NCBI RefSeq assembly: GCF_900156625.1
Contig: NZ_FTOB01000004.1
Coordinates: forward strand, 434,001 to 498,000
From: Zobellia uliginosa
GTDB taxonomy: Bacteria; Bacteroidota; Bacteroidia; Flavobacteriales; Flavobacteriaceae
Direction of reading: 5' to 3'
Length of the DNA: 64,000 nt
Positions 29,314-53,620 of this stretch are shown one piece after another. A program made the translations under genes and the position numbers. How positions within the stretch are numbered: the stretch's first letter is position 1; every line of letters starts with the position of its first letter. Below the pieces are notes generated by a model, which ran no database searches, was not told the DNA's origin, and was given only the letters and a program-made list of their open reading frames with translations.

Positions 29314-29343
29314 CAAAATTGGTTAACCAGATTGGTTTGTTAA
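29314..29343. promoter_or_regulatory. GntR (AusR) operator at the regulator's own promoter
   Basis: TTGGTTAACCAG (29319-29330) and the weaker TTGGTTTGTTAA (29332-29343) start exactly 13 bp apart. A near-consensus -7 box on the minus strand (CAATTTTG, complement of 29314-29321) overlaps the first copy, about 14 bp before the start codon. This predicts negative autoregulation and a very short leader. Confidence 0.8.
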
Positions 29344-29431
29344 AATTATAAAAAAATAATCTACTAAAAAAGTATTTTTTGTTTAATAAAAATCAGCTTT
29401 TATGGGGTGTTGAAGCGATTTTTGAATTTTA

Positions 29432-29454
29432 CCGACCCGTGGTGAGCGGGTCGG
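29432..29454 (-). terminator. hairpin after the PL7 gene
   Basis: CCGACCCG (29432-29439) and CGGGTCGG (29447-29454) form an 8-bp GC-rich stem downstream of the susC-susD-PKD-PL7 operon. The following T content is weak, so it may be a terminator or an mRNA-stabilising end. Confidence 0.55.
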
Positions 29455-29540
29455 CAAAATTACTGCCAATCTAACTCAAAACAACATAATTTTAATTCTT
29501 ATTTTATGTAGTAGGTATTTCGTTTTTATAGAAAAACCAA

Positions 29541-30461
29541 CTAGTGTGCAACTTCTAAATCGTAAAATTTCACCTTGGCGTAACTCCCTTCATCCTTACT
29601 TTGAAAGTAGTTTCCTGCCTTGAAGTAATTTTCGAAGATTCCCCACCTTTTGATATTGACATCATCATAGACCGCATATTCCGTATTGTTCATAATGACT
29701 ACCAGTTTCCCTTTGGAAACCTTGACCTCAAGTTTGAACTTTTTAAATCCAACATAGTCAGGGAAGGTATATCCCTCATCGTCGCCCCAGGCTTCTTCGT
29801 GTAAAATTTCTTGATCTGAAGCGCTTTTGTTCTTCAGTACCTTGGTCTTTACCCGCACATAGCCTTTGTCCCAATATATTTTTAGAATGGGCGGGGCATT
29901 GTTGTCTTTTGCCCCAATGCGCTCTTTTTGCTCGTTGGTCAATCGGCCATGGATTTGCATGATAATGGTTCGATGGTACTTGCCACTGGTGTCTTTGGTG
30001 ATTTCATCTACCGCCAAAGTTCCCTTCATCCTTCCTCCTTGTTCAAATGTCCAATTTACATTGTTGTCACCAGGTACCATTTGCTCGCGTAGCTCGCTTC
30101 TTGAATACTTGGTGTTGGCCGTAGTTGAATTCGGAAAAGCATAAAATACCACTGAACCATCGGTGGAATCATTATAGAAATAGGGACGTACGACTTCATT
30201 CGTAGCATAGTCCAGAATTTCGGGAGGCTCAACTTCTGTTGGTTTTCCAACAGGAAGGGTAAGCTTCCAATGACTCAGGTCTATTTTGGGTAACTTATAT
30301 TTCTTGATATCGACACTCTCGGTTTCCGGGGTGTCTATATTCGCATAGGGCCCATCTTGATTTGCCGCAACTGCCAAGTCATTACTGTCTTGGCAGTTTC
30401 CGGCAGAAACCAAAACTAAACTCAAATAACAAGCTCTAAAAAAGTTGCTTAAAAACTGCAT
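29541..30461 (-). CDS. alyA2: PL7 alginate lyase
   Basis: A 306-residue secreted protein with signal peptide and Cys23 near its end (a weak lipobox, AGNC). The PL7 jelly-roll domain spans about 60-306 with the three hallmark strands: RSELRE (121-126), QIH (169-171) and YFKAGNYFQ (279-287). R121, H171 and Y285 are the expected catalytic-site residues. QIH rather than QVH is usually linked to activity on guluronate. It depolymerises alginate by beta-elimination, probably at the cell surface. Last gene of the susC operon, 8 bp after the PKD gene. The symbol follows my memory of the Zobellia locus. Confidence 0.92.
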   Translation of the reverse strand: MQFLSNFFRACYLSLVLVSAGNCQDSNDLAVAANQDGPYANIDTPETESVDIKKYKLPKIDLSHWKLTLPVGKPTEVEPPEILDYATNEVVRPYFYNDSTDGSVVFYAFPNSTTANTKYSRSELREQMVPGDNNVNWTFEQGGRMKGTLAVDEITKDTSGKYHRTIIMQIHGRLTNEQKERIGAKDNNAPPILKIYWDKGYVRVKTKVLKNKSASDQEILHEEAWGDDEGYTFPDYVGFKKFKLEVKVSKGKLVVIMNNTEYAVYDDVNIKRWGIFENYFKAGNYFQSKDEGSYAKVKFYDLEVAH

Positions 30462-30469
30462 TTTTTTCT

Positions 30470-31351
30470 TTAAGGTTGTTCTTCTACCGGAGCAATGGCA
30501 ACATTATCCAAGTAGGAATCCTTTGCGTTACCGTCGTGGTCGAACAAAATGCTTATCTCACCATTGGCACCTGTTTCGAAGGCTACCGTAAGCGTGTTAA
30601 AGTTGCCTTTGCCTTCATTTACGGTTCCTGATTCTTGAGCCAATAAGGTAGCGTCGGCAAACTCACTGAAATTACCCAGTTGTCCATCGATAACACTTGC
30701 CCGAACACTGTCTCCGTCGGCTTGCAATGCATATCTGGCGGTCAAGACATATTTGGTGTTCGGTGAAACTTTAACGGCTTGATAGGTGACACGGTTATTA
30801 TCGCTTCCAGAGGGGTATTTGGCACCTCTTGTATCAGCCTCCCCGTCACTGGTGGTTTGGTGAATGGTCGCCCCTTCAATTCTCCAACAATCCCTACTGT
30901 CAAGACAACTGTCATCAACACCGTCATCAAAAGCGGCTCCGCCAATTTTTGGTGTGATGGCCAATGGTACCTCGGGCTCAATAACTTCGATGGTTTGTGA
31001 AACCGTACTTGACACACCTAACTTATCGGTTGCGGTCAAGGTAACCGTGTAGGTTCCTTCATCTGGGTAGGTATTGGTGCCATCTACATCGGTAGATGTA
31101 TTACCGTCACCAAAATCCCATACATAATCGGTGGCACTATTGGAGTTGTTACCAAAGGTAAACGTCAGGAAGTCATCGGTCGGCGAGATTGAAAAACTTG
31201 CCGATGGAGGGGTCAGGTCAGCCTTTGAATTTGCTTCGGGCAGTTCGTACTCGAAGGTGTCTTCACAAGCAATACCGGATAGAATTACGACGAGCGATAG
31301 AAATCCGTAGTACTTGTTTTTCAATATTTCGATATTTAAAATATGTTTCAT
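30470..31351 (-). CDS. PKD-domain surface glycan-binding lipoprotein
   Basis: A 293-residue lipoprotein (lipobox ending SGIAC, Cys29). A PKD domain lies about 48-130 (YVWDFGDGNTSTDVDG is the core motif). The C-terminal part (about 150-290) is a beta-sandwich-like region resembling a carbohydrate-binding module (YLDNVAIAP near the end). Between susD and the PL7 gene, it fits the role of a surface glycan-binding protein that captures alginate chains for the SusCD complex. Binding specificity is inferred from position only. Confidence 0.82.
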   Translation of the reverse strand: MKHILNIEILKNKYYGFLSLVVILSGIACEDTFEYELPEANSKADLTPPSASFSISPTDDFLTFTFGNNSNSATDYVWDFGDGNTSTDVDGTNTYPDEGTYTVTLTATDKLGVSSTVSQTIEVIEPEVPLAITPKIGGAAFDDGVDDSCLDSRDCWRIEGATIHQTTSDGEADTRGAKYPSGSDNNRVTYQAVKVSPNTKYVLTARYALQADGDSVRASVIDGQLGNFSEFADATLLAQESGTVNEGKGNFNTLTVAFETGANGEISILFDHDGNAKDSYLDNVAIAPVEEQP

Positions 31352-31381
31352 TTTTTACAGTTTTTATGGTAAACCAAGTGA

Positions 31382-32812
31382 TTAGTATCCCGGATTTTGA
31401 CTCATTGATCCGTTGCTCAGGTTAATCTCGTTTTGCGGAATAGGCAGTAACAAGTCGGTTGAAGAATACCCAAGGTTATTAGCTGAGGAGAAGGCGGAAA
31501 AAACCGATTCCGCTTGACCAAATCGAAGCAAATCGAAGAAGCGATGATTCTCGAAGGCTAATTCGACCCTTCTTTCCAACAACAAATCTTCTTTTGTAAC
31601 TTCGGTAACCGCGTCGGTAAGCCCCGCTCTGTTGCGTACAGCCTGAAACGAGGCCAAAGCTTTTGAAGCGGTAGTACTGGCACCACCGGCCATAATGGCT
31701 TCTACATGGAGAAGAAGTACATCGGCGTATCGGATTACGATCCAATCGTTGCCCGCAAGTGTCGGGTCGCTATCAAAGCTTTTTCCATTCGAACCGCCAT
31801 CTTCGCCGTTCGGAAGGTATTTGGTTACCTGATACTGACCTACCTGTGAAGGGTCCGGCCTATATGAGACTGCGGTCCTGTCACCCCCAAATTCATCTAA
31901 TACGGCAACGGCCTCACTGGTTACATAGTTAACCCCTGAAGTTCTACCTACACCGTTCAACCATTCGGCCGAAAAGTTTTGACTGTCTGAACTTAGGTTT
32001 GGAAGGTAGCCTATCGAGAAGATAACTTCATTGTTTTCTTCGTTGTAAAATACATCTCCAAAGTCGGGCTCTAGGGAATAGCCTGAAGCCATAACACTTT
32101 CCAATAGGGTTTGGGCTTCTGAATAGTTTTCTCCCAAGGTCAAGTATACTTTTGCCAATAGGGTCTGTGCAGCAGCTTTGGACGCTCTAGTGCGGTAGGT
32201 GTTGTCTAGCCCGTTAACTGCAGTAGACAAGTCGCTCTTGATAAAGTCATATATAGACGATGCGGCAACACGGGCAAATTGAACATCGGTTTCCAAAGGT
32301 CCGACTACTCTATCTATCAAAGGAACATCGCCATAGAGGCGCACTAAATTGAAATAGGCATAGGCTCTAACGAATTTAGCTTCGGCTTCATATGATGCTT
32401 TAGTCGCTGCGTTTTCTATTACATCAAGATTGTCCAATACTACATTGGCCCTATAGATGATGTTGTAATAGCTCTCGTAATAATTGGCAATAATACCGTT
32501 GTTCGGTGTTATGTTATAACTTTCGAACTGCGCTGCTTCACCCTCGCTACTTTTGGTACGGGTATTGTCGCTCCGCATTTCGGTGATGTAGAATTCGTAT
32601 TGAATGCCATGTCTGTCATCGGGATCCGTCGAATTTACTCCTTGAATACCGTCATACATGTTGATCAAAGCGGTTTCTAGTTCTTCTTCCGTAGAGAAGT
32701 AGGTTTCCGAAGATACCCCTGATGTTGGTGCGGGAGACAAGAAGTCCTTTTCGCAGGCCGTAAAGGATACGACTACCACCAGAAGCATCGTTATTAGTTT
32801 GAATTGTTTCAT
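31382..32812 (-). CDS. susD: SusD-like surface glycan-binding lipoprotein
   Basis: A 476-residue RagB/SusD protein with lipobox SFTAC (Cys20). It has the helical TPR-type scaffold, the family motifs ALINMYDGIQG near residue 48 and ALASFQAVRNRAGL near 388, and the typical C-terminus LLPIPQNEINLSNGSMSQNPGY. It caps the SusC barrel and delivers alginate oligosaccharides. It starts 33 bp after susC, in the same operon. Confidence 0.95.
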   Translation of the reverse strand: MKQFKLITMLLVVVVSFTACEKDFLSPAPTSGVSSETYFSTEEELETALINMYDGIQGVNSTDPDDRHGIQYEFYITEMRSDNTRTKSSEGEAAQFESYNITPNNGIIANYYESYYNIIYRANVVLDNLDVIENAATKASYEAEAKFVRAYAYFNLVRLYGDVPLIDRVVGPLETDVQFARVAASSIYDFIKSDLSTAVNGLDNTYRTRASKAAAQTLLAKVYLTLGENYSEAQTLLESVMASGYSLEPDFGDVFYNEENNEVIFSIGYLPNLSSDSQNFSAEWLNGVGRTSGVNYVTSEAVAVLDEFGGDRTAVSYRPDPSQVGQYQVTKYLPNGEDGGSNGKSFDSDPTLAGNDWIVIRYADVLLLHVEAIMAGGASTTASKALASFQAVRNRAGLTDAVTEVTKEDLLLERRVELAFENHRFFDLLRFGQAESVFSAFSSANNLGYSSTDLLLPIPQNEINLSNGSMSQNPGY

Positions 32813-32845
32813 AATATATCGTGAATTTTGTTTATACTGTTCTGA

Positions 32846-35800
32846 TTAAAAATCAAGGTTAAGTCCTATAGAAATCGTTCTATATATAGGGGAACCTGCC
32901 CTTTGGTAACCGTAAGATGTCGGACTTGTCCTATCTATGGATTCAGGATTGAAACCTGTATAGTCATCTGCCGTCTTATACATAAGGTTTTGGCCAGTAG
33001 CATATATCCTTAAACCAGACACACCATAATCGCTCAAAACGTCTTTTGGGAAGTTGTATCCAATATTTACGTTTCTCAATGCTAGGTACGAAGCGTCTTG
33101 AATAATATCATCGGTGAATATTTTTTCTTTGATAAATTCTTGGTTAGGAGTTGTTTCAGGATTGAAATCTTGGGAAGAATTAAAATGGTTGAACAGGTAC
33201 TGGTCTCCCATGTTTCTGATTTCGGCACCATGTGAACCTTGGAACATAAAACTAAAATCGAACTTGCCAAGATTGAACTCGTTGGTGAAACTCCAGACCA
33301 ATTCTGGATATGGGTCTCCTAAAGCAGCTTTGTCTTCATCATCAATAATACCATCGCCATTTAAATCTTTTACGTAAACATCTTGGGCTTCGCCACCTAC
33401 GGGGTGGAAAGCATCGTTCAAGTATTCAAGCGGAATGTCTTTGTCGACGACCCAGCCATAGAATGTGGAAATCGGTTGTCCTTCAAGGTTGATCCACTCT
33501 GCTGCCCTCTTAGAGTCTACATTTGTAATTTGACCGTTAGAGTCGGCGAAATCGACCAAAGTGTTCTTGTTCGTTGAAGCGATGATCGTCGAGGCCCACC
33601 TGAAGTTTTCTGTAGCAATGTTCTTTGTTCTCAGTTCAATTTCATAACCTTCGTTTTTGACTTCACCCAAATTAACAAGGGCACTGTTGAAACCTGTAGT
33701 TACTGAAATTGGATTGTTCAATAATAGTTGGTCACTGGTTCGTTGGTAATAATCAACGGACCCCGATACTCTATTGTTGAAAAAGCCGAAATCCAGACCA
33801 GGGTTGAATTCTCTCAAACGCTCCCATTGAAGTCCCGCATTGGCTATGTTCAGAGGGTTAAAGCCCGCTTGTAATGAACCGTCTACCGAATAGGTCGTTG
33901 AGCCTAAAAGGGCCAAGTAGGGGTAGTTGTCTACCAAAATATTACCTGTGCTCAAAGAACTTGTACTACTACTGGTATCGGGATCAACACTACCTACGTT
34001 GAGCAAATCGTTTCCTGTTAGACCGTAACTGGCCCTCAATTTAAAAGTGCTTACGATATCACTATCCTGTAAAAAGTTTTCCTTGGCAACGTTCCAACCA
34101 ATGGAAGCAGCGGTGAAATTACCGTATTTGAAATCTTGACCGAAGATAGAGCTACCGTCCCTTCTATAGCTAAATGAGGCTAGGTATTTATCGTCATAGG
34201 CATAGTTCAGTCTGGAAACGTATGATAGGCCGTTCTTTTCCCATTCAAAGGCATCTGCATTTGAAATGGTCGTAGCGTTGGTGATTTGCTTAACGGCATC
34301 GGAAGTATAACCGGTTCCGCTAATTTGTGAATAAAACGATTTTTTCGTTTCGGCGGTTACCCCTAAAATTACACTTAGATCATGCTTGCCGAAACTCTTG
34401 TTAAAGGATAGGAAGTTGTCGGTAATAAGATAGATCTCTTTTTGTGAATATTCATCCATTGAGGCACCGGCGGCACCGTTTCTGCTGGATAGGGTACCTT
34501 GCCACCTTGTCCTTTTGGTGTCTTGGTACGAACCGGAAAGGGTAGATCGGAAACTTAAACCGTCAATGATGTTGTAATTACCGTAAACGCTACCGAACAT
34601 TTTGAATTTTTTGTCGTAACGTTCGCGCTCCAATACTTTGGCCGCTGGGTTGGCGTTCGATGTGTTACTGATGCTTACCCCGCCAGAATCTGCAGGGGCA
34701 CCTGCATCTAGGTCGTAACCATCAAAATGATATTGTTGCGCGTAATCACCGACCTTAATATCGGCCCATGCCCCATTATCTTGAACCCTGTTTACGAATT
34801 GAATCGTATTTTCATCATGATAGAGAGGCAGCCAATTGGTCTGTCTTAATATATCGTGGGTACTTCCATCAAACCTTCTTCTGTTGGTGTAAGAAGGGGT
34901 AAAGTTTACACCAAAGGAAAACTTATCGTTTATTTTGGTATCTACTTTAAGTCTTAATCCGTATTTTTTGAAATCGTCGGTAATTAAGACACCTTCGTCA
35001 TGTGAGTAGTTAAGGGCGGTGCTATACTTGGTTTTTTCACTTCCACCGCGAGCCGATAGGGAATGACTGGTAATGGTACCACCATCAAAAATGACATCTT
35101 GCCAAGAACGGTCAACACCTATGAGTTGTTTGTATTTCGTTCTGTCGGATAATGAGCCGGTGGCGGCCAATTGGGCTTGTGCTGTTTCTTCTATTGAAAA
35201 GGTATAGGCTTCACTATGTCTGGCTTCTTTAAAACCGGTATAGGTACTATAGTTGATACGGGTCTTACCTTCAACACCACCTTTTGTGGTTATCATGATA
35301 ATACCGTTGGCACCTTTTGAACCGTAAATGGCAGATGATGCTGCATCCTTTAAAATCTCGAAAGACTCTACATCGTTCATGTTCAATGAACCTAGGAAGT
35401 CTGAACTTACAATTACACCATCGACAACGACCAATGGGGTAGAGTCACCGGCCATAGAGCCTACACCCCTGATATTTATGGTAGGAGCGGCTCCGGCTTC
35501 GCCATCGGTGGCTTGGATATTTACCCCCGATACCTGCCCGACCAAGGCGTCATCGACACGGGCTACTGCTATTTGATCGAGGTTTTCGTTGACTACTTTT
35601 GAGATCGAACCGGTCAAATGTGATTTCTTTTGGGTTCCCCCATAACCAATAACCACTACCTCGTCTAATTGTTTGGCGTCTTCGGCCATGGTTATATTTA
35701 ACTCGGTCTGACCCGTTATGGGTATGGTTTGTGTAACGTAGCCGATGTATGAAAATTGAAGAATATCGCCTTCTGAAACGTTTATTTGAAATAATCCGTC

Positions 35801-35971
35801 AAAATCTGTTGAGGTGCCTTTGGTTGTATTGGCGATTATGACGTTAACTCCCGGTATTGGAACATTGTCCGCATCGGAAACCGTGCCTGACAGTGTGTAA
35901 CCGTCTTGGGCAAATAGCGATATATTGAGACACAATAATGCTATTAGTGTGAGTTGAGTTTTTAAATTCAT
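32846..35971 (-). CDS. susC: SusC/RagA-type TonB-dependent outer-membrane transporter
   Basis: A 1041-residue protein: signal peptide (1-21, SLFAQ), carboxypeptidase-like beta-sandwich (about 25-105), plug domain (about 115-230, with the SusC signature AIYGSKGANGIIMITTKGG) and a C-terminal beta-barrel ending SIGLNLDF. It imports alginate oligomers across the outer membrane with energy from TonB. First gene of susC-susD-PKD-PL7. The predicted promoter and operator are some 330 bp upstream, so the mRNA leader is unusually long. Confidence 0.96.
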   Translation of the reverse strand: MNLKTQLTLIALLCLNISLFAQDGYTLSGTVSDADNVPIPGVNVIIANTTKGTSTDFDGLFQINVSEGDILQFSYIGYVTQTIPITGQTELNITMAEDAKQLDEVVVIGYGGTQKKSHLTGSISKVVNENLDQIAVARVDDALVGQVSGVNIQATDGEAGAAPTINIRGVGSMAGDSTPLVVVDGVIVSSDFLGSLNMNDVESFEILKDAASSAIYGSKGANGIIMITTKGGVEGKTRINYSTYTGFKEARHSEAYTFSIEETAQAQLAATGSLSDRTKYKQLIGVDRSWQDVIFDGGTITSHSLSARGGSEKTKYSTALNYSHDEGVLITDDFKKYGLRLKVDTKINDKFSFGVNFTPSYTNRRRFDGSTHDILRQTNWLPLYHDENTIQFVNRVQDNGAWADIKVGDYAQQYHFDGYDLDAGAPADSGGVSISNTSNANPAAKVLERERYDKKFKMFGSVYGNYNIIDGLSFRSTLSGSYQDTKRTRWQGTLSSRNGAAGASMDEYSQKEIYLITDNFLSFNKSFGKHDLSVILGVTAETKKSFYSQISGTGYTSDAVKQITNATTISNADAFEWEKNGLSYVSRLNYAYDDKYLASFSYRRDGSSIFGQDFKYGNFTAASIGWNVAKENFLQDSDIVSTFKLRASYGLTGNDLLNVGSVDPDTSSSTSSLSTGNILVDNYPYLALLGSTTYSVDGSLQAGFNPLNIANAGLQWERLREFNPGLDFGFFNNRVSGSVDYYQRTSDQLLLNNPISVTTGFNSALVNLGEVKNEGYEIELRTKNIATENFRWASTIIASTNKNTLVDFADSNGQITNVDSKRAAEWINLEGQPISTFYGWVVDKDIPLEYLNDAFHPVGGEAQDVYVKDLNGDGIIDDEDKAALGDPYPELVWSFTNEFNLGKFDFSFMFQGSHGAEIRNMGDQYLFNHFNSSQDFNPETTPNQEFIKEKIFTDDIIQDASYLALRNVNIGYNFPKDVLSDYGVSGLRIYATGQNLMYKTADDYTGFNPESIDRTSPTSYGYQRAGSPIYRTISIGLNLDF

Positions 35972-36173
35972 TTGTAATAATGTTAAGTTAGTAATGTTTA
36001 TCGGTTAAGGTCCGATACCTAAATGAGATTGTGTGGAATCGCATTTGTTCTTCAACTTACTAGTGCACGTTACTCATTAATGTCCCTGAATTTTGTACTT
36101 TTGTAATGAGCGTGTATAGTAAAGTGTACATGTTCTTAGTATTACTTCCCTTCAGAATGAAGTAAATTTTTTT

Positions 36174-36204
36174 AAAAGGATGGGCGTGCACCCATCCTTT
36201 TTTT
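36174..36204. terminator. strong hairpin within the susC leader
   Basis: AAAGGATGGG (36175-36184) and CCCATCCTTT (36191-36200) form a perfect 10-bp stem. The T-run is longest on the plus strand; on the minus strand TTTT follows the stem. It lies between the susC operator/promoter and the susC start, so it could terminate read-through from the PL17-kdgF-SDR operon or attenuate susC transcription. Confidence 0.7.
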
Positions 36205-36273
36205 ATTGAAAATAGGCTATGGTATCATTAGTGTTTTTCTTTTATTAGTATTAGCATTTTCTTCAAGTTTTAA

Positions 36274-36316
36274 TTGGTTTTCCATATTGGTTAACCAATT
36301 TGGTTTACCAAATATA
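36274..36316. promoter_or_regulatory. triple GntR (AusR) operator and susC promoter
   Basis: TTGGTTTTCCAT (36274), TTGGTTAACCAA (36287) and TTGGTTTACCAA (36300) are three 12-bp sites starting exactly 13 bp apart. A perfect minus-strand -7 box TATATTTG (complement of 36309-36316) overlaps the last site, so the downstream sites lie over the transcription start. This is the strongest operator array in the window. Confidence 0.85.
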
Positions 36317-36430
36317 ACTTAATAGTTTGTTAAAAAAAAATTAATGTCAAAATTTGTGATGTTAATTTTAGGTATCTAATACTTAAAAGGGGTCTAAGAT
36401 GCCAAATCGGCAATTTGTGGTGGTTCTAGC

Positions 36431-37183: not shown

Positions 37184-37188
37184 AGTTA

Positions 37189-37539
37189 TTATTTAGTCAT
37201 AAAATCTTCCCTGATCGGGCTGAAAACATCTATTAATACGCCTGCTTCTTGACAAACGGTTCCGTGCATTACGTGGGGAGGAATGTAAAATGAATCGCCT
37301 CCTTTTAGCATTTTGGTCTCTTCACCTATTGTCATCTTGAATTTTCCGCTTACCACGTAAGTTACTTGTGAGTGGTAGTGCTCGTGCATGGGGCCTATAC
37401 CGCCCTTTTCAAATTTTACGTTTACGAGCATGATCTTATCATCGTAGCCCATAATTTGACGTTGCACGCCTTCGCCTACGGTTTCCCAAGGGATTTCGTC
37501 CCCGATTAAAAACTCCTTACTTGATCCAAAACTTTCCAT
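37189..37539 (-). CDS. kdgF: KdgF-type cupin (unsaturated uronate linearisation)
   Basis: A 116-residue single cupin. The predicted metal ligands are H52 and H54 (HEH), Q58 and H92 (VMHG). KdgF converts the 4,5-unsaturated uronate released by exolytic lyases into linear DEH. The gene lies 9 bp after the PL17 gene and 5 bp before an SDR gene, matching the pathway order. No signal peptide, so cytoplasmic or co-localised with cytoplasmic steps. Confidence 0.92.
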   Translation of the reverse strand: MESFGSSKEFLIGDEIPWETVGEGVQRQIMGYDDKIMLVNVKFEKGGIGPMHEHYHSQVTYVVSGKFKMTIGEETKMLKGGDSFYIPPHVMHGTVCQEAGVLIDVFSPIREDFMTK

Positions 37540-37548
37540 AGTTTAATT

Positions 37549-40136: not shown

Positions 40137-40176
40137 TTGGTTAACCAAATTGGTTGACCAAAAATAAGTATATTTG
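40137..40176. promoter_or_regulatory. GntR (AusR) operator with divergent promoters
   Basis: TTGGTTAACCAA (40137-40148) and TTGGTTGACCAA (40150-40161) start 13 bp apart. A plus-strand -7 box TATATTTG lies at 40169-40176 (toward the TIM-barrel gene) and a minus-strand box TATTTTTG (complement of 40159-40166) faces PL17. Both overlap or abut the operator, so one bound repressor could close both promoters. Confidence 0.85.
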
Positions 40177-43276: not shown

Positions 43277-43293
43277 GCCGGAAGTTGGGGGAC

Positions 43294-45254: not shown

Positions 45255-45275
45255 CTTGCAAAATTGCTACAAGAT

Positions 45276-45294
45276 TTTGGAAAGAATTGGGAAT
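45276..45294. promoter_or_regulatory. putative response-regulator binding site at its own promoter
   Basis: TTTGGAAAGAATTGGGAAT, one base different from the copy at 43258-43276, lies 22-40 bp upstream of the response-regulator start. Two TTCC half-sites on the minus strand are 11 bp apart. Confidence 0.7.
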
Positions 45295-45354
45295 TTCCGA
45301 TTTTTTTTGGCCTTCCTTCCCAGGTCGTAGTGTTTTGCAGATCGAGGTCCTTGC

Positions 45355-47034: not shown

Positions 47035-47064
47035 TCGATTCTTTTTTTACTTTACATCTTATTC

Positions 47065-48684
47065 CTATTCCCGGGCCGCCTTAAACTCGCTGCCCTCGTA
47101 CCATTTTGGAAAATAGGTCTCGTTCGCCAATTTTCTTCCCACCTCAAAAAACAACTGCAGGTCGAAGCTTACCCCGCTCAATTCGGTGGTTTCGGGATCG
47201 TATTCATCCGAAGGTTGATGGTACTTATGGGTGTTGTAGTCGTCTAAGGTGGCTTTTATCGATTCCCTACTTTGGTCGAAAGCTTCGTAACTGCCACTGG
47301 CGTAGAGGGCGGGAATACCGATTTTTGCAAAATTAAAATGGTCCGATCTAAAAAAGTACCCCTTTTCGGCATGGGGATCGGGAATGATATAACGCCCTTG
47401 TTTTCGTGCGGCCTCCTCGGCATATTGGTCCATTTCCGACTGGCCGTAACCCGTTATGGTCAGGTCTTTCATTTTTCCGGGACTGCCCAAGGCATCCATA
47501 TTGATATTGGCTACGGTTTTTTTAGGGTCGAAAACCGGATTCTCGGCATAGTAGGCGGAGCCTAGCAAACCTTGCTCTTCCGCGGTAACCGCTATAAAGG
47601 CGACGGAACGTTTTGTGGGACCGTTTTTCTTGAAGGCCTCGGCAATGGCAAGAAGGCCCGCGGTACCCGAAGCATTGTCTATGGCACCGTTGTAAATGGA
47701 ATCGCCATCAATGGGCTTACCTACGCCAAGGTGGTCCCAGTGGGCCGAGTAGATGATGACCTCGTCCTTTTTTTCCGTACCCGGAATAAGGGCGATTACG
47801 TTTTTTGAAACGTCTTTTTTGATCTTGTTTTGAATGGAAACCGAAACGTCTAGGCCCAAGGGGATGGGTTCAAAGCCTTTGCTTCGGGCCAATACCTTAT
47901 AGTCTTCCCCTTTCATGATGGAGGCATCGAAGATCTTTTGGGCGCTTTCTTGGTTTACCCAAGATTCGACCTTTAAGAGGGGCAGGTCGCTTTCAATGAT
48001 CAATTTGGCACCGCTCCAACCCGATTCGACCACGTTCCAGCCATAGGAAGCCGGTTCGGTATCGTGAATGATAATAAGTCCGTCGGCCCCTTGTCTTGCG
48101 GCCTCCTCATATTTGTAGGTCCAACGCCCGTAATAGGTCATGGCGTTTCCCTTGAACAAGGTAGAGTCGCCCGATTGAAATCCCGGGTCGTTGACCAAGA
48201 CCACGGCGGTCTTTCCTTTCCAGTCGATACCTTCGTAGTCGTTCCATCCGTATTCGGGGGCCACGATGCCGTAGCCGGCAAAGACCAGCTCGGAGCGGTC
48301 AAGGCCGATTTCGGTCTCCACTTGGCTGGTAGTGGCTACAAAATCGCTCAGGACCTTGAGGTCAAAGCTTCCGTCTTTTCCCGATATCACCATTTTTTCC
48401 GAAGGGCTACCATCGATTTCTACCAAGGGCACCTCTTGAAAGTAGCTATCGCCGTTACCCGGTGAAAGTCCGAGTTTTTCAAATTCATCCTTTAAGTAAT
48501 TCACGGTCTTTACCTCGCCTTCCGTAAAGGGCTTCCTCCCTAAAAAGGCATCCGAAGCCAAGCGCTCTATATGTTTGGCCAAGGTGGCTTGGTCTATCTC
48601 CACCGGTTTTTCGGCGTTTTTATTTTCCGTATTACAGCTTATACATAAGGCGAGTACTAAAAATTTCAAGAGATTCTTGGTCAT
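47065..48684 (-). CDS. M28-family zinc aminopeptidase lipoprotein with PA domain
   Basis: A 539-residue protein starting at ATG 48684 (a start 9 bp earlier is possible). Lipobox ISC at Cys17. A PA-type insert lies about 125-255. The M28 zinc site is complete: SAHWDHLG (H, D), GAIDNASGTAG (bridging D), AVTAEEQGLLG (EE), NMDALGSPG (D) and FRSDHFNFAKIG (H). It likely trims peptides at the cell envelope. Confidence 0.92.
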   Translation of the reverse strand: MTKNLLKFLVLALCISCNTENKNAEKPVEIDQATLAKHIERLASDAFLGRKPFTEGEVKTVNYLKDEFEKLGLSPGNGDSYFQEVPLVEIDGSPSEKMVISGKDGSFDLKVLSDFVATTSQVETEIGLDRSELVFAGYGIVAPEYGWNDYEGIDWKGKTAVVLVNDPGFQSGDSTLFKGNAMTYYGRWTYKYEEAARQGADGLIIIHDTEPASYGWNVVESGWSGAKLIIESDLPLLKVESWVNQESAQKIFDASIMKGEDYKVLARSKGFEPIPLGLDVSVSIQNKIKKDVSKNVIALIPGTEKKDEVIIYSAHWDHLGVGKPIDGDSIYNGAIDNASGTAGLLAIAEAFKKNGPTKRSVAFIAVTAEEQGLLGSAYYAENPVFDPKKTVANINMDALGSPGKMKDLTITGYGQSEMDQYAEEAARKQGRYIIPDPHAEKGYFFRSDHFNFAKIGIPALYASGSYEAFDQSRESIKATLDDYNTHKYHQPSDEYDPETTELSGVSFDLQLFFEVGRKLANETYFPKWYEGSEFKAARE

Positions 48685-49098
48685 AGATATCATGTTTTGT
48701 TGAACAGATGGTCGATAGGGTCATAGGTTGCGCTAAGATCTACTAAAACACCTATAGAACTAAGGTCGAAGATCTAGAGGGATTTTCCAACTTTAAGGGG
48801 GCAAACAAAATTAAGGTACGGGCTTGTGCCTCTATCGTTTAGGCGCTATAAAATAGGGAGAGAGGAAGGCCTTGGGCACAGTCTTTCATTCTAGGGCGCT
48901 GTGGGTGAAAAGCCTATTTTATAGCTCTTGGGCCAAGGAGCAAACAAAAGCTTGAACGGTGTTTTTTTGAAACCCGAAATAGGAAGGATAGAAGATATGG
49001 TTTGTGGTATGGATGAATCATATGTGATTTAAAATAAATCAAATGTAAGGTAATGGATGCTTATCTTTTTCGATATTTATAGTATAAAACTTACACCT
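48685..49098. other. intergenic region before the GH86 gene
   Basis: About 400 bp between divergent M28 and GH86 genes. It holds both promoters by position. I found no GntR operator, no long palindrome and no credible ORF. Confidence 0.5.
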
Positions 49099-51258
49099 AT
49101 GAAATTATTTTATTTTACAGCAAAGCTATCGCTTACTTTTTGTCTCTGTCTTATGTTTACCTCGCTTTACAGCCAGGGAGAAGTAACAATTGATCACAAA
49201 ACCAAGCGTGTGGTCAATGGGGAATCTTTTTTTAAACGGAAGAAATATTTTAATATCCACCAATTGACCGATCCCGATGATCCCGATTTTAAAAAGTTTA
49301 AAACCACTTATGGAATGGCCGATAGTTACCGAGGGGGACGCTTGTTAGACAGTCCCATGAAAAAAGGAAGGAACGGAAACTTCCCGGCGGTCAACAAACG
49401 CTTTACGGGAGTACGTTCCGTAGAGGACCGTTTTGCCTCAGGTTTTCCGAACGATTTCTTTTATGACGGAGAAGCCGATTATTCAAAGGTAGACATGACG
49501 GATTATATCGACCGGTTAACAAACTATATAAGGGATTACTATCGATATGAAGAAGAACAAGTACCAAAGTATATAGAACCTTTGAACGAACCCATGGTCC
49601 ATGCCGTAGATTTTTATCCTGAGGGAAGGGCGACCCCCAAAAAGTATTTGTCGGAAAAGATCAATATTATAAATACACGGGTTTCGGAATTTCACCGTGA
49701 ACTTGGGAAAAAGATCCATGCGACCCCGGAACTGGCAAATATGAAGGTTGCCGGCTATGCTTCGGCCTTTCCGATGTTCGAATCGAATGATTTTAGGCTG
49801 TGGACCAATCGATACAAGCGATTTATTGATATAGCGGGTAAGGATGTAGATGTCTTTAGCCTGCACCTGTATGATGGTGTAGGGGTAAACAATAGTGGGG
49901 GGCGTAGATCGGGCTCCAATGTAGAGGCGATATTGGATATGGTGGAAACCTATAGCAAACTAAAACTCAATACGGTCAAACCCATTGCCGTTACTGAATA
50001 CGGCCGTTTGGTAGCGGATCGCCCCGGTTGGCCCGGAGACGGGGTGTCTAACTATGACCCGGTGGAAAACTCCCAGGCCTTGCGTTCGCAAATGCACATG
50101 GCCATGTCGTTTATAGAGCGGGGCGGCGATATCGTATATAGCATTCCCTTTACCATGGCAAAAACTCCCCCTACGGCCAAATATTCAAAATCGGGACTCT
50201 GGAACCGGGTTTCAAGAAATCCTGATGTGTGGGAATATACGCCACGGGTAAAATTCTTTGAGATATGGAAAAATGTCAGGGGCAAAAGAGTGCAGATCAA
50301 CTCCAGCAATATTGATGTTCAGGCACAAGCCTTTGTAAACAAAAAAAAGTTATATGTAGTGCTGAACAACCTGAACGATGAAACGCAAACGGTAGATTTA
50401 AATCTCTTGAACAAAAGCGGATTGCAAGGGGTGGCGATAAAACGGCTCAAGGTATTTCTCGATAGGCCGGCCGAAATAACGCAACATTCCCAAGATACAG
50501 CTCCGAAAAAGGTGAGTCTTGAATATGGGGAATCGGTGGTGTTGACCTATACTTTTGATACCGAAATAGCTTTGAACAATACGATCACGAGCAAAAAATA
50601 TTATGCGGATTCGTATTTGAAAGCCATTGAAGCCAATAAAAAATTGGTCTTTAATTTTAAGAACGTGACCGCAAAAACGGGTGTGGCCACCATTAGGGTC
50701 AGTATCGGTAGGGCCCATGCCAAAAACCGTAGGCCCAAAATATATGTAAACCATCGGCAAGTGGACTATAGCGGTGATGTTGTTCGTGGATATGATCAAG
50801 GGACGCGAAGCAGTTTTTTTGGCACCCTTGAGATTCCCGTAGCCATGGACCGATTAAAAAGCGATGGTAAGAACGTAAGGGTTGAGGTTGAATTTCCGGA
50901 TCAAGGCGGGCATGTGAGTTCCGTGGTCTTGCAGGTAGAGAACTATACCGATGCCCGAAATACTGCGGCCATGGGAATGGGTGAAGCCGATGGTCTTTTG
51001 TCGGATGAAAACGATAAGGTACGGGTGTATCCGAACCCCGTTAACGAAAATAGCCTGATTCGTGTAGAGGTGAAAACCGAAACGAAGGACCCCAGTGTAC
51101 AAATCTCAATGCGGGATATGTCGGGGAAATTGGTCTATAGGGAAAGCTTCGATAAAGGGCCGATCCAGATACCCACCGCTAAGTTTAGGGAAGGGATTTA
51201 TTTTATGAACATCGCCTCGGAGGGCACTACGGTTTCAAAAAAGATAATTATAGAGTAG
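49099..51258 (+). CDS. secreted GH86 beta-agarase/beta-porphyranase with T9SS domain
   Basis: A 719-residue protein starting at ATG 49099, where a signal peptide begins (about 1-26, LYSQ). The GH86 (beta/alpha)8 domain covers about 30-400: the acid/base is E164 in EPLNEP and the nucleophile E300 in VTEYGR. Beta-sandwich domains follow (about 405-620), then a T9SS sorting domain (about 635-719, VRVYPNPVNENSLIRVEV to KKIIIE). GH86 enzymes cleave agar or porphyran; which one is not decidable. No SusCD pair lies beside it, so it acts as a stand-alone secreted enzyme. A strong terminator follows. Confidence 0.9.
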   Translation: MKLFYFTAKLSLTFCLCLMFTSLYSQGEVTIDHKTKRVVNGESFFKRKKYFNIHQLTDPDDPDFKKFKTTYGMADSYRGGRLLDSPMKKGRNGNFPAVNKRFTGVRSVEDRFASGFPNDFFYDGEADYSKVDMTDYIDRLTNYIRDYYRYEEEQVPKYIEPLNEPMVHAVDFYPEGRATPKKYLSEKINIINTRVSEFHRELGKKIHATPELANMKVAGYASAFPMFESNDFRLWTNRYKRFIDIAGKDVDVFSLHLYDGVGVNNSGGRRSGSNVEAILDMVETYSKLKLNTVKPIAVTEYGRLVADRPGWPGDGVSNYDPVENSQALRSQMHMAMSFIERGGDIVYSIPFTMAKTPPTAKYSKSGLWNRVSRNPDVWEYTPRVKFFEIWKNVRGKRVQINSSNIDVQAQAFVNKKKLYVVLNNLNDETQTVDLNLLNKSGLQGVAIKRLKVFLDRPAEITQHSQDTAPKKVSLEYGESVVLTYTFDTEIALNNTITSKKYYADSYLKAIEANKKLVFNFKNVTAKTGVATIRVSIGRAHAKNRRPKIYVNHRQVDYSGDVVRGYDQGTRSSFFGTLEIPVAMDRLKSDGKNVRVEVEFPDQGGHVSSVVLQVENYTDARNTAAMGMGEADGLLSDENDKVRVYPNPVNENSLIRVEVKTETKDPSVQISMRDMSGKLVYRESFDKGPIQIPTAKFREGIYFMNIASEGTTVSKKIIIE

Positions 51259-51279
51259 ATGATTATTGCGTAAAGGATA

Positions 51280-51311
51280 AGCACAGCCCTTCTTTTTAGG
51301 AGGGCTGTGCT
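51280..51311 (+). terminator. intrinsic terminator of the GH86 gene
   Basis: AGCACAGCCCT (51280-51290) and AGGGCTGTGCT (51301-51311) form an 11-bp perfect stem with a T-containing loop. Confidence 0.8.
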
Positions 51312-51332
51312 GTATTCTTATCCGATATGTTT

Positions 51333-51378
51333 CCCCAACCCCAACCCCAACCCCAACCCCAACCCCAACCCCAACCCC
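51333..51378. repeat. telomere-like (CCCCAA)7CCCC tandem repeat
   Basis: Eight CCCC runs separated by AA. The minus strand reads GGGGTT repeats, enough for two adjacent G-quadruplexes. It lies 22 bp after the GH86 terminator in non-coding DNA. ORFs across it are composition artefacts. Confidence 0.95.
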
Positions 51379-51572
51379 ATCCCAAAAGCATTGAAAATTC
51401 AAAATCGGTAAGGGGCAAAATGCGTCATTGACACGTGTATCGCTACCGCCCATACATTTTAAAGGAATATGTAACTCTCTGGTTACTAGATTTATTGTAG
51501 TCGTATCGCCATAAGGTAAGAGCTTGTGGCGACGCTAAAAAAAATGCTTTATACACCTTAAAACAGAAAAAG

Positions 51573-52514
51573 ATGATACGAGTTACAGCCGATTTATTTT
51601 CAGGTCGCCCCAATCCGAGTTGGATCATGGCCGATGCCAATGGGGAAGAAATCCTTAAGCAGATAGCAAAAGAGAAACAGATCATTTCCAAACCCAATGC
51701 CGGTTACGACGGTTTGGGGTTCAGGGGCATAGAGATCGAGGTCATTAGCGATGAAAAACTGCGGGGCATACCCAATTCCTTTAAAATTGCCGATGGTACG
51801 GCCGAAGACCAAAAAACCAGTATTGGAATCGCCAGTAGGATCGTGGAGCAAATGACCCGCTACAGCAAGTTGAGCCTCGATTCGCACAGGCTGACGCCCA
51901 TAGACAAACACATTCAGAAGATCATCTTGGCGAGTATCGAACAGTATCAACTGGACCTTGAACGAATTGGAAAGGTGATAAAAAAGCGCTATCCCAAACT
52001 TCCTAAAAACTCCAAAAGGGTTACCGTAGACGATGCCTCTTGCTGTGATTGTAAATACGAGGAAAGCAAGTTCAACCCGAATTTTTGGAATGCCGACAGC
52101 CATGTGCGACGCAATAACAATTGCTATAACTACGGGAGGAACTGGAAGACCAACACCTTTGCCCAGCCCGGCCGGTTCTCGGGCCAAACCGCGGGAGCGA
52201 TGAGTTGTAGCGAGGTCAAGGCGGCTTCCCTTCGCGATGGCTTGAAGTTGCGATGTGATTGCCTTCCGCAAAGCGAATATCCGAGGAGGTTGATGGCATT
52301 GGTCATTGCCCCGGGCGTCGATTACCACTGGTACAGAAAACAAGACGGTGGGTTTTGGGGGCATAAGCCTGGCGGAACCCCTGCCAAGAACACCGATAAT
52401 AGCGGTAATCTCATTACCGATCCCGAGACTTGCGACCGAGGTTCGGGCTCCACTTTGAACTATACCGATTTTTGTGATTATTTTTATGCGGGCAAAAGTG
52501 TGTCCATTATCTAA
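51573..52514 (+). CDS. SGRPNP-domain protein with Cys-peptidase-like (NlpC/P60-like) C-terminal domain
   Basis: A 313-residue protein without signal peptide. The N-terminal domain (about 1-140) carries LFSGRPNPSW (8-17) and YDGLGFRGIEIEV (45-57), also found in the next gene's product. The C-terminal domain (about 155-313) has NNNCYNYG (candidate nucleophile C184), TFAQPGR, DYHWYRK (candidate H252), GHKPGGTPAKNTDNSG and DPETCDRG. This order resembles papain/NlpC-P60-like amidases, but I do not recognise a named family. Nine cysteines are unusual for a cytoplasmic protein. It may be a peptidase or amidase whose partner is the following gene. Confidence 0.6.
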   Translation: MIRVTADLFSGRPNPSWIMADANGEEILKQIAKEKQIISKPNAGYDGLGFRGIEIEVISDEKLRGIPNSFKIADGTAEDQKTSIGIASRIVEQMTRYSKLSLDSHRLTPIDKHIQKIILASIEQYQLDLERIGKVIKKRYPKLPKNSKRVTVDDASCCDCKYEESKFNPNFWNADSHVRRNNNCYNYGRNWKTNTFAQPGRFSGQTAGAMSCSEVKAASLRDGLKLRCDCLPQSEYPRRLMALVIAPGVDYHWYRKQDGGFWGHKPGGTPAKNTDNSGNLITDPETCDRGSGSTLNYTDFCDYFYAGKSVSII

Positions 52515-52525
52515 ATAAGACGGCC

Positions 52526-52879
52526 ATGGAGGTATACAAACTGGAACTGGATATACTTTCAGGCGGACAGAATCCACAATTTGAGATAGGGCCCTATGAA
52601 TTCATGGGGCTTTTTCATACCATTGAAGCCTTGGAGGAAAGTGCCACGGATGGTTTTTTTGACGGCCTCGGTTTTCGGGGTTTTGTCTTGTCGAAGGGAG
52701 AACGATTGCGGTGTACGGTGCAGAAGACCATCATAAAAATAGAGGAGGGGGCCGAAACAAGATATAAACGGGGCGATCCCGGCTTGATCCGTCAGTTGTT
52801 CGAACTGGTCCGTAAATACGACCCCGATAAACGATATGGGCAGCTGATCGCCATGGCCGCCAAAGATTATAGGTCCTGA
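52526..52879 (+). CDS. stand-alone SGRPNP-like domain protein
   Basis: A 117-residue protein beginning 11 bp after the previous gene. LDILSGGQNPQF (8-19) and FDGLGFRGFVLS (45-56) align with LFSGRPNPSW and YDGLGFRGIEIE of its neighbour, and both continue with a helix rich in RxxxQLFELVRKY or RIVEQMTRY. It lacks the Cys-peptidase domain. As a free copy of its neighbour's N-terminal domain it could be an inhibitor, adaptor or immunity-like partner. No signal peptide, no recognised family. Confidence 0.6.
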   Translation: MEVYKLELDILSGGQNPQFEIGPYEFMGLFHTIEALEESATDGFFDGLGFRGFVLSKGERLRCTVQKTIIKIEEGAETRYKRGDPGLIRQLFELVRKYDPDKRYGQLIAMAAKDYRS

Positions 52880-53067
52880 CCTCGGTATATAGAAATACAC
52901 CGAAGGCAAAGACCTTTCTTTTGAGGCGGTCTCGCTTCGGGTTCTAGGGGCAATATAGGGGAAGGTTTCGGGGGAACCGAGAGCTATCCACTTGGCATAA
53001 CTTAGGCCTTCCGTATGAAAAACACAGTTGGGTATTCCTGTTAAAAACAGCGCCTAAAACTAGGATA

Positions 53068-53568
53068 TCATCCGTATTTACGGGCGAGGTATTTTAAGAT
53101 AGTATCGATATTTTCCGGTTCGGGCGAAGCGATATCGATGGTCAGGGCGCGTTTGGGTATTTCAAGGGCCTCAAAATCCGATTTGATCATAGAGGCCGGA
53201 CGGTCGTGGTTTTCCGTTTGTTCCGCACGTTGGATCAGGTGTTCGTACGAACCGTTCATAAAGACCCAATCCAATTCGTGGTCTACTTGGTCCGCGATAA
53301 ATAAACGGTGTTCTTTCTTCAATACCGAACAAGAGATCACGCAGCCTTTTTTTGCCGATTCGGCAATAATGATTTCTTTAATGGACATCAACCATTTTTC
53401 AAGGTCTACGTCTTGGGGCAATTGGCCCTCGGGTAGTGCTTTGGAAAGGGGCAGCTTTTCCGCATCAAAGAACGGAATTTCCAATCGCTGGGCGACCTTT
53501 TCGCCTACGGAACGCTTTCCCGAACCGCAAACCCCTACTAAAATGACGATGTAATTGTGCTTTTTCAT
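53068..53568 (-). CDS. gluconokinase-like (GntK) P-loop kinase with atypical Walker A
   Basis: A 166-residue protein from ATG 53568; an extended start is rejected because it would cross the operator. GntK features are PEGQLPQDVDLEKWL (about 46-60), CVISCSVLKKEHR (about 76-88), HDRPASMIKSDFEALE and the C-terminal LTIDI. The Walker A motif reads GVCGSGKRS (12-20): Arg19 replaces the Ser/Thr that binds Mg after Lys18. Kinase activity may be altered or lost. It is divergent from kdgK2 and under the same GntR operator, so a role in alginate-derived sugar-acid metabolism is likely. Confidence 0.8.
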   Translation of the reverse strand: MKKHNYIVILVGVCGSGKRSVGEKVAQRLEIPFFDAEKLPLSKALPEGQLPQDVDLEKWLMSIKEIIIAESAKKGCVISCSVLKKEHRLFIADQVDHELDWVFMNGSYEHLIQRAEQTENHDRPASMIKSDFEALEIPKRALTIDIASPEPENIDTILKYLARKYG

Positions 53569-53580
53569 ACGTTGCTTTAA

Positions 53581-53620
53581 TTGGTTAACCAAATTGGTTA
53601 ACCAAATATATGTATATTTG
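53581..53620. promoter_or_regulatory. GntR (AusR) operator between gntK-like and kdgK2, divergent promoters
   Basis: TTGGTTAACCAA occurs twice, perfect, at 53581-53592 and 53594-53605, again 13 bp apart. Minus-strand -7 TATATTTG (complement of 53603-53610) faces the gntK-like gene, and plus-strand TATATTTG (53613-53620) faces kdgK2. Confidence 0.88.

What the first reader, a model, noticed from the sequence alone, without database searches (positions are those of the whole stretch)
29314..53620. A 13-bp-pitch tandem palindrome code marks an alginate regulon across 24 kb
Seen: TTGGTTAACCAA and close variants occur at four promoter regions: 29319/29332, 36274/36287/36300, 40137/40150 and 53581/53594. 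In every case adjacent copies start exactly 13 bp apart. Known: FCD-type GntR proteins bind palindromes of the TnGT...ACnA kind, and I recall AusR as a GntR repressor of alginate genes in Zobellia. Inference: the fixed 13-bp pitch, slightly over one helical turn, means that two or three dimers bind side by side, probably cooperatively. Copy number differs (two, three, two, two), which could set promoter strength order. The site count at susC is highest.
Basis: partly seen in the sequence, partly recalled or inferred. Interest (0 to 1): 0.75.

Follow-up and report, generated by a model that had tools for sequence, protein, structure and literature searches.

The report
Alginate operators plus conserved antisense RNA
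A seaweed-eating marine bacterium marks its alginate-digestion genes with repressor sites stacked exactly 13 bases apart and built into the promoter, and its main uptake gene also carries a conserved, predicted antisense RNA that may hold it in check.

Summary
The arrays are real. In the 5.3-Mb genome every perfect pair of TGGTNNACCA cores at any pitch from 10 to 40 bp (5 of 5) has pitch 13 and lies before an alginate-pathway gene; weaker arrays precede ausR and, on another contig, an alyA1-like lyase gene. In 75 loci of related regulators, sites with at most one mismatch pair at 13 bp (106) or 26 bp (33), with 5 at other distances up to 70. Among 60 family genomes, perfect pitch-13 pairs occur only where the AusR-type FCD GntR regulator occurs. 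The first palindrome is fused to the Bacteroidetes -7 box (TAnnTTTGGT, 86 of 88 arrays), so the regulator should cover box and start site. susC arrays mostly have 3-4 copies (52 of 65), others 2 (20 of 23). Cooperativity is plausible (NanR precedent) but untested. The susC leader holds a second layer: a conserved predicted antisense RNA (~97 nt) with its own -7 box and terminator, in 61 of 75 loci, 12 of 13 regulator-bearing and 0 of 47 regulator-free family genomes, matching no Rfam family. It resembles DonS-type antisense RNAs of Bacteroides. There are no binding or expression data, and the primary AusR paper could not be read.

The parts
28572..29300 (-). AusR-type FCD GntR regulator, 242 aa
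   Evidence: Pfam GntR 65.1 bits and FCD 77.4 bits; 2 FCD matches in the genome; 11 of 11 aligned proteins keep D151, H155, H200, H222
29319..29343 (.). Operator array upstream of ausR, 2 copies, the gene-distal one degenerate; 18 bp from the ATG (autoregulation inferred)
   Evidence: 3 mismatches; no TAnnTTTG within 45 bp
36274..36311 (.). Operator array of the susC operon, 3 copies at 13-bp pitch
36309..36316 (-). -7 box TATATTTG of the susC promoter; its TTTG overlaps the first palindrome; start site inferred near 36304
   Evidence: box position -12 to -5 from passages of PMC9723704
36217..36228 (-). Short upstream reading frame ATG-ATA-CCA-TAG in the susC leader
   Evidence: an ATG 16-26 nt from the edge of the RNA match in 54 of 63 leaders, shuffles 15% (the range was chosen)
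36108..36204 (+). Predicted antisense RNA (~97 nt) complementary to the middle of the susC leader: variable 5' part, hairpin ACTTC..GAAGT, terminator hairpin and T7
   Evidence: no Rfam family over its gathering score in the window
36096..36103 (+). -7 box TACTTTTG of the antisense RNA
   Evidence: TAnnTTTG in 48 of 64 matches (63 in related loci and the window), shuffles 6.6%
40137..40161 (.). Operator array, 2 copies, upstream of the PL17 operon (minus strand)
40159..40166 (-). -7 box TATTTTTG fused to the array, with TTTG 19 bp upstream
40169..40176 (+). Possible divergent -7 box TATATTTG on the other strand (towards 40234)
53581..53605 (.). Operator array, 2 perfect copies, between two divergent sugar-kinase-like genes
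53603..53610 (-). -7 box TATATTTG fused to the array, facing the 53068-53568 kinase gene, with TTTG 19 bp upstream
53613..53620 (+). Possible -7 box TATATTTG for the divergent PfkB (KDG-kinase-like) gene 53823-54824
29541..30461 (-). PL7 alginate lyase
   Evidence: Pfam Alginate_lyase2, 194.6 bits
32846..35971 (-). SusC-type TonB-dependent transporter
   Evidence: TIGR04056, 762 bits
37549..39894 (-). PL17-type oligoalginate lyase
   Evidence: NF042990 at 697 bits, below its cut-off of 1400; Hepar_II_III_C and Alginate_lyase over cut-off
53068..53568 (-). Gluconokinase/shikimate-kinase-like gene, first gene on the minus side of the 53581 array
   Evidence: the longer TTG-start form
53823..54824 (+). 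PfkB family kinase, KDG-kinase-like

Best explanation
The arrays are the operators of an AusR-type FCD GntR repressor that controls the alginate regulon. Shown by sequence: palindromes TTGGTnnACCAA repeated at exactly 13-bp pitch at seven promoters on three contigs, at five of them with the first palindrome fused to the -7 box as TAnnTTTGGT. Inferred: with the box at -12 to -5, palindrome 1 covers -7 to +5, palindrome 2 +7 to +18, palindrome 3 +20 to +31, so bound dimers (each turned about 86 degrees from the next) block RNA polymerase at the -7 box and start site, until an alginate breakdown product releases them. The outer-membrane uptake gene susC has an extra copy and so probably tighter, steeper control. 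A second layer is inferred at susC: a conserved ~97-nt antisense RNA, transcribed from inside the susC leader towards the operator, pairs with leader RNA that escapes repression and keeps susC off until induction is strong.
For: Pitch. Gene context: (88 arrays in ortholog loci: next gene susC 65, PL genes 11, ausR 7, the MFS gene 2, unclassified 3). Regulator. Co-occurrence in 60 family genomes: perfect pitch-13 pairs in 12 of 13 regulator-bearing and 0 of 47 other genomes; the 13th, G019, has two places with 1 mismatch. -7 fusion: 86 of 88 arrays on the gene-facing side, 1 of 88 on the other. Antisense RNA: a terminator-like hairpin on the antisense strand in 50 of 66 leaders versus 5 on the sense strand; 49 G-U versus 2 A-C cells, which marks the antisense strand as the folded one; 98.8% of cells paired, covariation score and double-changed cells above 500 of 500 shuffles; -7 box in 48 of 64; 61 of 75 loci; one strong copy in the genome; 12 of 13 regulator-bearing and 0 of 47 other family genomes. 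Precedents, passages read: AusR represses most alginate genes (PMC8286568); NanR cooperativity (PMC8012715); DonS-type antisense RNAs (PMC7366714).
Against: No binding, footprint, start-site or expression data. The ausR and alyA1-like arrays lack the fused box and are imperfect, and so do the two arrays of G144, a relative outside the family. AusR lacks the N-terminal extension that NanR needs for cooperativity. 10 of 75 ortholog loci have no strict array; 5 of these are held as stretches of 20.7 kb, the other 5 are shorter. 16 of 64 antisense loci lack a perfect TAnnTTTG; for the window's antisense promoter I saw no -33 element by eye. Of the 50 antisense hairpins at least one (L054) is not the conserved one. 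24 of the 49 G-U cells come from one pair, and two covariation measures were reached by 10 and 6 of 500 shuffles. Part of the hairpin could act as a weak terminator on the sense strand. The loci were chosen by similarity to AusR (best 80 of 284), so they are related and not independent. Gene context of arrays in the unnamed family genomes was not examined.
Confidence: 0.75

Rival explanations
1. The unit read by the protein is not TTGGTnnACCAA but the whole 25-bp element, for example by one tetramer, or the inverted register ACCAA-n-TTGGT centred on the linker base.
For: Tandem palindromes also make this second palindrome; single sites hardly occur (1 of 102 perfect sites).
Against: Outer half-sites are as conserved as inner ones (in 85 arrays TTGG 100%, CCA at the end of copy 2 100%, linker base 54%), though the first TTGG is also held by the -7 box. 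Copies run 2, 3, 4 in whole 13-bp steps. NanR and most GntR proteins act as dimers (PMC8012715 passages).
Confidence: 0.15
2. The 13-bp pitch reflects promoter geometry or local duplication rather than protein-protein contact: dimers bind independently and the second copy only adds occupancy.
For: AusR has no NanR-like N-terminal extension. The first copy is tied to the -7 box.
Against: Duplication alone would not keep one exact pitch in many genera; no pairs at 12 or 14 bp among sites with up to 2 mismatches; second and third copies differ in sequence yet keep the pitch.
Confidence: 0.25
3. The conserved leader element is a sense-strand attenuator: the short upstream reading frame just before the hairpin couples translation to premature termination of susC transcription, and the antisense strand is not transcribed.
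For: An upstream ATG in 54 of 63 leaders, a frame of at most four further codons in 36 of 50; the hairpin also folds on the sense strand, there followed by about four T.
Against: G-U/A-C asymmetry of 49 to 2 points to the antisense strand; terminator scan 50 antisense to 5 sense of 66; antisense TAnnTTTG in 48 of 64.
Confidence: 0.2
4. The arrays belong to another regulator, such as the second FCD protein of the genome (C12:803794) or a non-GntR protein.
For: A second FCD match exists, about 57 kb from the C12 arrays.
Against: Arrays follow presence of the window regulator over 60 genomes; an array lies directly before its own gene; a review names AusR of this family as the alginate repressor (PMC8286568 passages).
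Confidence: 0.04

Closest known systems
AusR of Zobellia galactanivorans (Dudek 2020, NAR; not held, known here from passages of PMC8286568 and PMC8073546)
   Same: GntR-family protein inside the alginate PUL; repressor of most alginate genes; released by alginate oligosaccharide products
   Different: Whether that paper already gives the tandem palindrome, its 13-bp pitch or the -7 fusion could not be checked. The window's protein was compared with relatives from three named Zobellia species (87-88% identity), not with that strain by name.
NanR of Escherichia coli (PMC8012715, abstract and passages read)
   Same: FCD-type GntR repressor of a sugar-acid regulon; two or three repeats with defined spacing; one repeat binds poorly; longer spacers weaken binding
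   Different: NanR repeats are GGTATA units and cooperativity needs a 32-residue N-terminal extension that AusR lacks; the sites here are full palindromes at 13 bp
DonS-type PUL cis-antisense RNAs of Bacteroides (passages of PMC7366714, PMC10994844, PMC11697453; Cao 2016 not held)
   Same: 78-128 nt antisense RNAs against susC homologs of PULs; reported to lower susC expression
   Different: Here in marine Flavobacteriaceae, at an alginate PUL with GntR operators, usually one copy per genome, conserved in sequence and structure; expression not shown
FopS sRNAs of Bacteroides (RF04319; passages of PMC11697453)
   Same: Bacteroidetes sRNAs that repress PUL operons at their first gene, typically susC-like; terminator hairpin at the 3' end
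   Different: 18.6 bits against a gathering score of 56; FopS come in 12-15 copies per genome with a shared seed, this RNA is usually single and lies opposite its presumed target

Membership tests
FCD-subfamily GntR regulators | GntR winged helix plus FCD domain | tested here: met
   Pfam PF00392 and PF07729, both over cut-off
FCD-subfamily GntR regulators | Metal-site residues Asp and three His in FCD (motif recalled) | tested here: met
   D151, H155, H200, H222 invariant in 11 of 11 aligned; metal binding itself not testable
AusR alginate repressors | Encoded in the alginate PUL | tested here: met
   Beside PL7, SusC and PL17 genes
[quoted passage not shown]
   Arrays at seven promoters are consistent
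NanR-type cooperative tandem operators | Two or more repeats at fixed spacing required for binding | tested here: inconclusive
   Fixed pitch and near absence of single sites; requirement for binding not tested
NanR-type cooperative tandem operators | N-terminal extension of about 32 residues | tested here: not met
   AusR GntR domain starts at residue 16; AusR residue 18 aligns with NanR residue 36
DonS-type PUL antisense RNAs | Antisense to or divergent from a susC homolog, about 78-128 nt | tested here: met
   Predicted 36108-36204, antisense to the susC leader; length and transcription are predictions
DonS-type PUL antisense RNAs | Lowers expression of the susC operon | not testable with these tools
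   No expression data
DonS-type PUL antisense RNAs | Sequence relation to DonS | not tested
   DonS sequence not at hand; no Rfam family over gathering score in the window
FopS (RF04319) | Score over the Rfam gathering cut-off | tested here: not met
   18.6 of 56 bits, E 2.4

The most novel reading that the evidence does not exclude
The alginate susC operon of marine Flavobacteriaceae is run by a conserved three-part switch: a repressor array fused to the -7 box and start site, a tiny upstream reading frame, and an antisense RNA that starts inside the leader and ends about 70 bp short of the operator. Repressor and antisense RNA together make a sharp threshold for induction, and the RNA founds a new family that travels with AusR.
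Probability: 0.6. Interest if true: 0.72.

Novelty: new variant of a known kind. Interest (0 to 1): 0.6.

Why it matters
Alginate is a main polymer of brown algae, and flavobacteria are important degraders of it. The operator grammar found here (exact pitch, fused to the -7 box, more copies at susC) makes the alginate regulon readable from sequence alone in many genera, including lyase genes far from the PUL. If the antisense RNA is real, it carries the Bacteroides idea of antisense control of susC into marine bacteria, and it gives a well-defined case, usually one copy per genome, in which repressor and antisense layers can be tested apart.

Tried and rejected
Single-site counting in the window: uninformative, 50 matches versus 47 expected. 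Genome search at 3 mismatches: near noise (31 versus 25 control hits); I rely on 0-1 mismatches and on the pitch distribution. The five places at 2 mismatches lie inside open frames and were set aside; of the 19 at 3 mismatches only the ausR array was looked at. Rfam: nothing over gathering; sub-threshold matches, FopS included, treated as chance. Weaker R1 matches in the genome, 32 bits or less (six), were set aside: one is the other strand of the same locus, one (window 22227-22348) holds a terminator-like hairpin, four were not looked at. Trans targets of the RNA loop: one pattern scan of four sequences found the cis site and two places inside C12 open frames, not followed. Membership in FopS and NanR-like cooperativity through an N-terminal extension: rejected. 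Paper searches for AusR or Zobellia, for antisense RNA at susC, for Zobellia antisense RNA with alginate and for GntR-alginate motifs listed no paper that I recognised as describing the motif or the RNA; of the listings only some papers were opened, as passages. The primary AusR paper is not held, so I do not claim that the motif is unpublished.

Choices that shape the counts: the 75 loci are distinct loci among the best 80 of 284 relatives. Array counts use a sum of at most 2 mismatches for a seed pair and extension at up to 3 mismatches per copy. Next-gene labels come from BLAST against 22 proteins of this genome, and gene starts are the first ATG/GTG/TTG of the frame, so distances are rough. 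Alignment A1 holds 46 sequences, those of the 66 leaders that were long enough and passed a regular expression; model R1 built on it then found more. In one search, 65 model matches of 39 bits or more were taken from the 128, and one (L111) was dropped for lack of a core. In one search, leaders shorter than 40 nt after trimming were left out (50 of 65 kept); the 16-26 nt range was chosen. One search used 10 of 75 orthologs plus the window. print only part of their 149 genomes; the tallies cover all. Searches used stricter filters that can lose weak matches.
Full report
What was claimed and what is there. All four are there. The copy at 29332 keeps only its left half well, and the copy at 36274 is imperfect. 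Counting single sites says nothing (50 matches versus 47 expected). Counting pairs says much. In the whole genome (G000, 5,303,163 bases, 27 contigs; the window is C6:434001-498000), pairs of perfect TGGTNNACCA cores at any pitch between 10 and 40 bp occur at five places, all with pitch 13; the reversed control pattern occurs at none.

The regulon is wider than the window. Three perfect arrays are in the window (susC, PL17, the kinase pair). The other two lie on contig C12, before two genes that match Pfam Chondroitinase B (PL6-type; the PL number is recalled), with a PL7 lyase gene between them. With one mismatch there is one more array, on C16, 27 bp before a PL7 lyase gene with an F5/8C domain, which resembles AlyA1 (name recalled). 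The ausR array passes only at three mismatches, where the search is near noise (31 hits in all, 25 in the control); its place directly before ausR is what makes it credible. The five places with two mismatches lie inside open frames of 363 codons or more and are probably chance; the places with 0-1 mismatch are intergenic, one of them overlapped only by a TTG-start extension. That the two kinase genes serve alginate use is an inference from their families.

The regulator. The gene at 28572-29300 (minus) has a GntR helix and an FCD domain; the best curated models are LldR, NanR and PdhR, all far below their cut-offs. The genome has one other FCD match, on C12, and no other relative of the full protein at E 0.001. 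Orthologs in three Zobellia species are 87-88% identical, so the genome is probably a Zobellia (inference). Eleven aligned proteins keep the aspartate and three histidines of the FCD metal site (motif recalled). Reviews describe AusR, a GntR repressor of most alginate genes in Z. galactanivorans, released by oligosaccharides (PMC8286568 and PMC8073546, passages).

The pitch is conserved. One scan of named genomes gave 75 loci with relatives 67-88% identical (from the best 80 of 284). Sites with at most one mismatch form 106 pairs at 13 bp, 33 at 26 bp and five at all other distances up to 70 bp (33, 39, 56, 68, 69); with up to two mismatches there are 157 at 13, 62 at 26, 7 at 15 and none at 12 or 14. 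Five control palindromes gave no pair at 13. The strict array search finds 88 arrays in 65 of 75 loci and none on the reversed sequences. 101 of 102 perfect sites have a partner. In 60 genomes drawn from the family (the own one included), 13 have the regulator. Of these, 12 have perfect pairs at 13 bp (38 pairs, and one more at 26 bp in one of them); the two other genomes with a pair have it at 12 and 17 bp and lack the regulator. The thirteenth, G019, has two places with one mismatch. G144, from another family of the class (63% identity), also has two places at up to one mismatch; three more distant relatives (45-48%) have none.

The operator is built into the promoter. Bacteroidetes promoters have a -7 box TAnnTTTG and in B. 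fragilis TTTG near -33 (PMC7366714 passages); in Flavobacterium psychrophilum the box lies at -12 to -5 (PMC9723704 passages). In 86 of 88 arrays the five bases before the first palindrome read TAnnT, so that the box ends inside it: TAnnTTTGGT. On the other side of the array this holds in 1 of 88. In the genome itself five of seven arrays show it; ausR and the alyA1-like gene do not, and neither do the two arrays of G144. Four of the five (PL17, kinase, both PL6) also have TTTG exactly 19 bp upstream; susC has TTTT there. In the 85 upstream stretches examined, TTTG peaks at that gap (12 of 85). With the box at -12 to -5 the palindromes cover -7 to +5, +7 to +18 and, at susC, +20 to +31. This predicts a plain steric block of RNA polymerase. 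A pitch of 13 bp turns neighbouring dimers by about 86 degrees (13/10.5 turns; arithmetic), which leaves room for side-by-side binding. Two arrays (40137, 53581) have a second box on the opposite strand 7 bp away and may control divergent genes as well.

Copy number. Arrays before susC have 3 copies (47), 4 (5) or 2 (13); arrays before other genes have 2 (20) or 3 (3). Whether it sets tightness or order of induction is untested.

Cooperativity. NanR, an FCD GntR protein, binds (GGTATA)3 as three dimers cooperatively; one repeat binds poorly and longer spacers weaken binding (PMC8012715, abstract and passages). NanR needs a 32-residue N-terminal extension, which AusR lacks: its GntR domain begins at residue 16, and residue 18 aligns with NanR residue 36. 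So AusR may work like NanR but by other contacts, or without cooperativity.

A second layer in the susC leader. The array lies about 300 bp before susC in the window, and 186 bp or more before it in 59 of 65 related cases (gene starts are rough). A terminator scan of 66 leaders found a terminator-like hairpin on the antisense strand in 50 and on the sense strand in 5; at least one of the 50 is another hairpin, and two of the five are the operator palindromes themselves. Alignment shows a conserved stretch of about 65 bases in otherwise variable sequence: GTATTACTTCCCTYC..GAAGTAAT, then AAAAGGATRGGCGTGCACCYRTCCTTTTTTT. The consensus fold has two hairpins. In 46 sequences 98.8% of cells pair; covariation score and double-changed cells (19) exceed 500 of 500 shuffles and every slid version, while two other measures were reached by 10 and 6 of 500 shuffles. 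Related sequences can exceed shuffles without structure, so this is support, not proof. On the antisense strand 49 cells are G-U (24 of them at one pair) and 2 are A-C; on the sense strand this would be reversed, so the antisense strand is the one kept foldable. A -7 box TAnnTTTG lies 33-54 bases before the first hairpin in 48 of 64 cases, against 6.6% in shuffles. In the window it is TACTTTTG at 36096, which predicts an RNA of about 97 nt at 36108-36204, antisense to about +101 to +197 of the predicted susC leader. A covariance model finds it in 61 of 75 loci (65 matches of 39 bits or more with the window), once strongly in the own genome (96.9 bits; the next match has 32), in 12 of 13 regulator-bearing family genomes (two of these with two copies) and in 0 of 47 others, and in 1 of 149 genomes drawn from the class, the own one. 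G014 (regulator 59% identical) has arrays but no convincing match (24 bits at best in the stretches searched). No Rfam family reaches its gathering score in the window. The known kind is the DonS group, cis-antisense RNAs of 78-128 nt that lower susC expression in Bacteroides (PMC7366714 passages; 32 PUL-associated antisense RNAs in B. thetaiotaomicron, PMC10994844 passages). I therefore call it a new candidate family of a known kind, in another class of the phylum.

A short upstream reading frame. In 54 of 63 leaders an ATG lies 16-26 nt from the sense-side edge of the RNA match (shuffles 15%), followed by AAA in 28; in 36 of 50 the frame stops after at most four further codons (shuffles 24%). 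The range was chosen after seeing the data. In the window it is ATG-ATA-CCA-TAG at 36228-36217. It may load a ribosome ahead of the hairpin; its role is open.

Mechanism proposed. Without alginate, AusR dimers sit on the arrays and hold the promoters shut; leaky susC leader RNA is met by the antisense RNA. A breakdown product releases AusR; strong sense transcription then runs over the antisense promoter and susC is made. The first step is published for AusR (passages of reviews read), the operator anatomy is shown here by sequence, the antisense step is inference.

Limits. There are no expression or binding data. The primary AusR paper could not be read, so the operator motif itself may already be published. 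The loci are related by descent and were picked by similarity to AusR. E-values from the covariance model are rough.

Noticed in passing
window 36217-36228 (-) and 54 of 63 related leaders: A conserved upstream ATG, often ATG-AAA, with a very short reading frame just before the susC leader hairpin; function unknown.
   Followed up: partly
window 40169-40176 and 53613-53620 (+): A second TAnnTTTG on the opposite strand 7 bp beyond the array suggests that two arrays serve divergent promoters.
   Followed up: partly
L089:9386-9551: An operator array and the antisense RNA match are kept although the next gene labelled by BLAST is ausR, not susC.
   Followed up: no
G001, G002, G144: Some relatives carry two copies of the AusR-type gene; a paper passage reports AusR duplication in part of Zobellia.
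   Followed up: no
window 22227-22348 (-): Weak match to the antisense RNA model (32 bits); contains a terminator-like hairpin with a T run.
   Followed up: partly
window 49057-51258 (+): A protein with porphyranase-type domains and a Por secretion tail lies between the alginate genes, although porphyran is a red-algal polymer (recalled).
   Followed up: no
G026:C4:41133-41837: The AusR-type match of this relative has one internal TAA, yet arrays and two antisense RNA matches are present.
   Followed up: no
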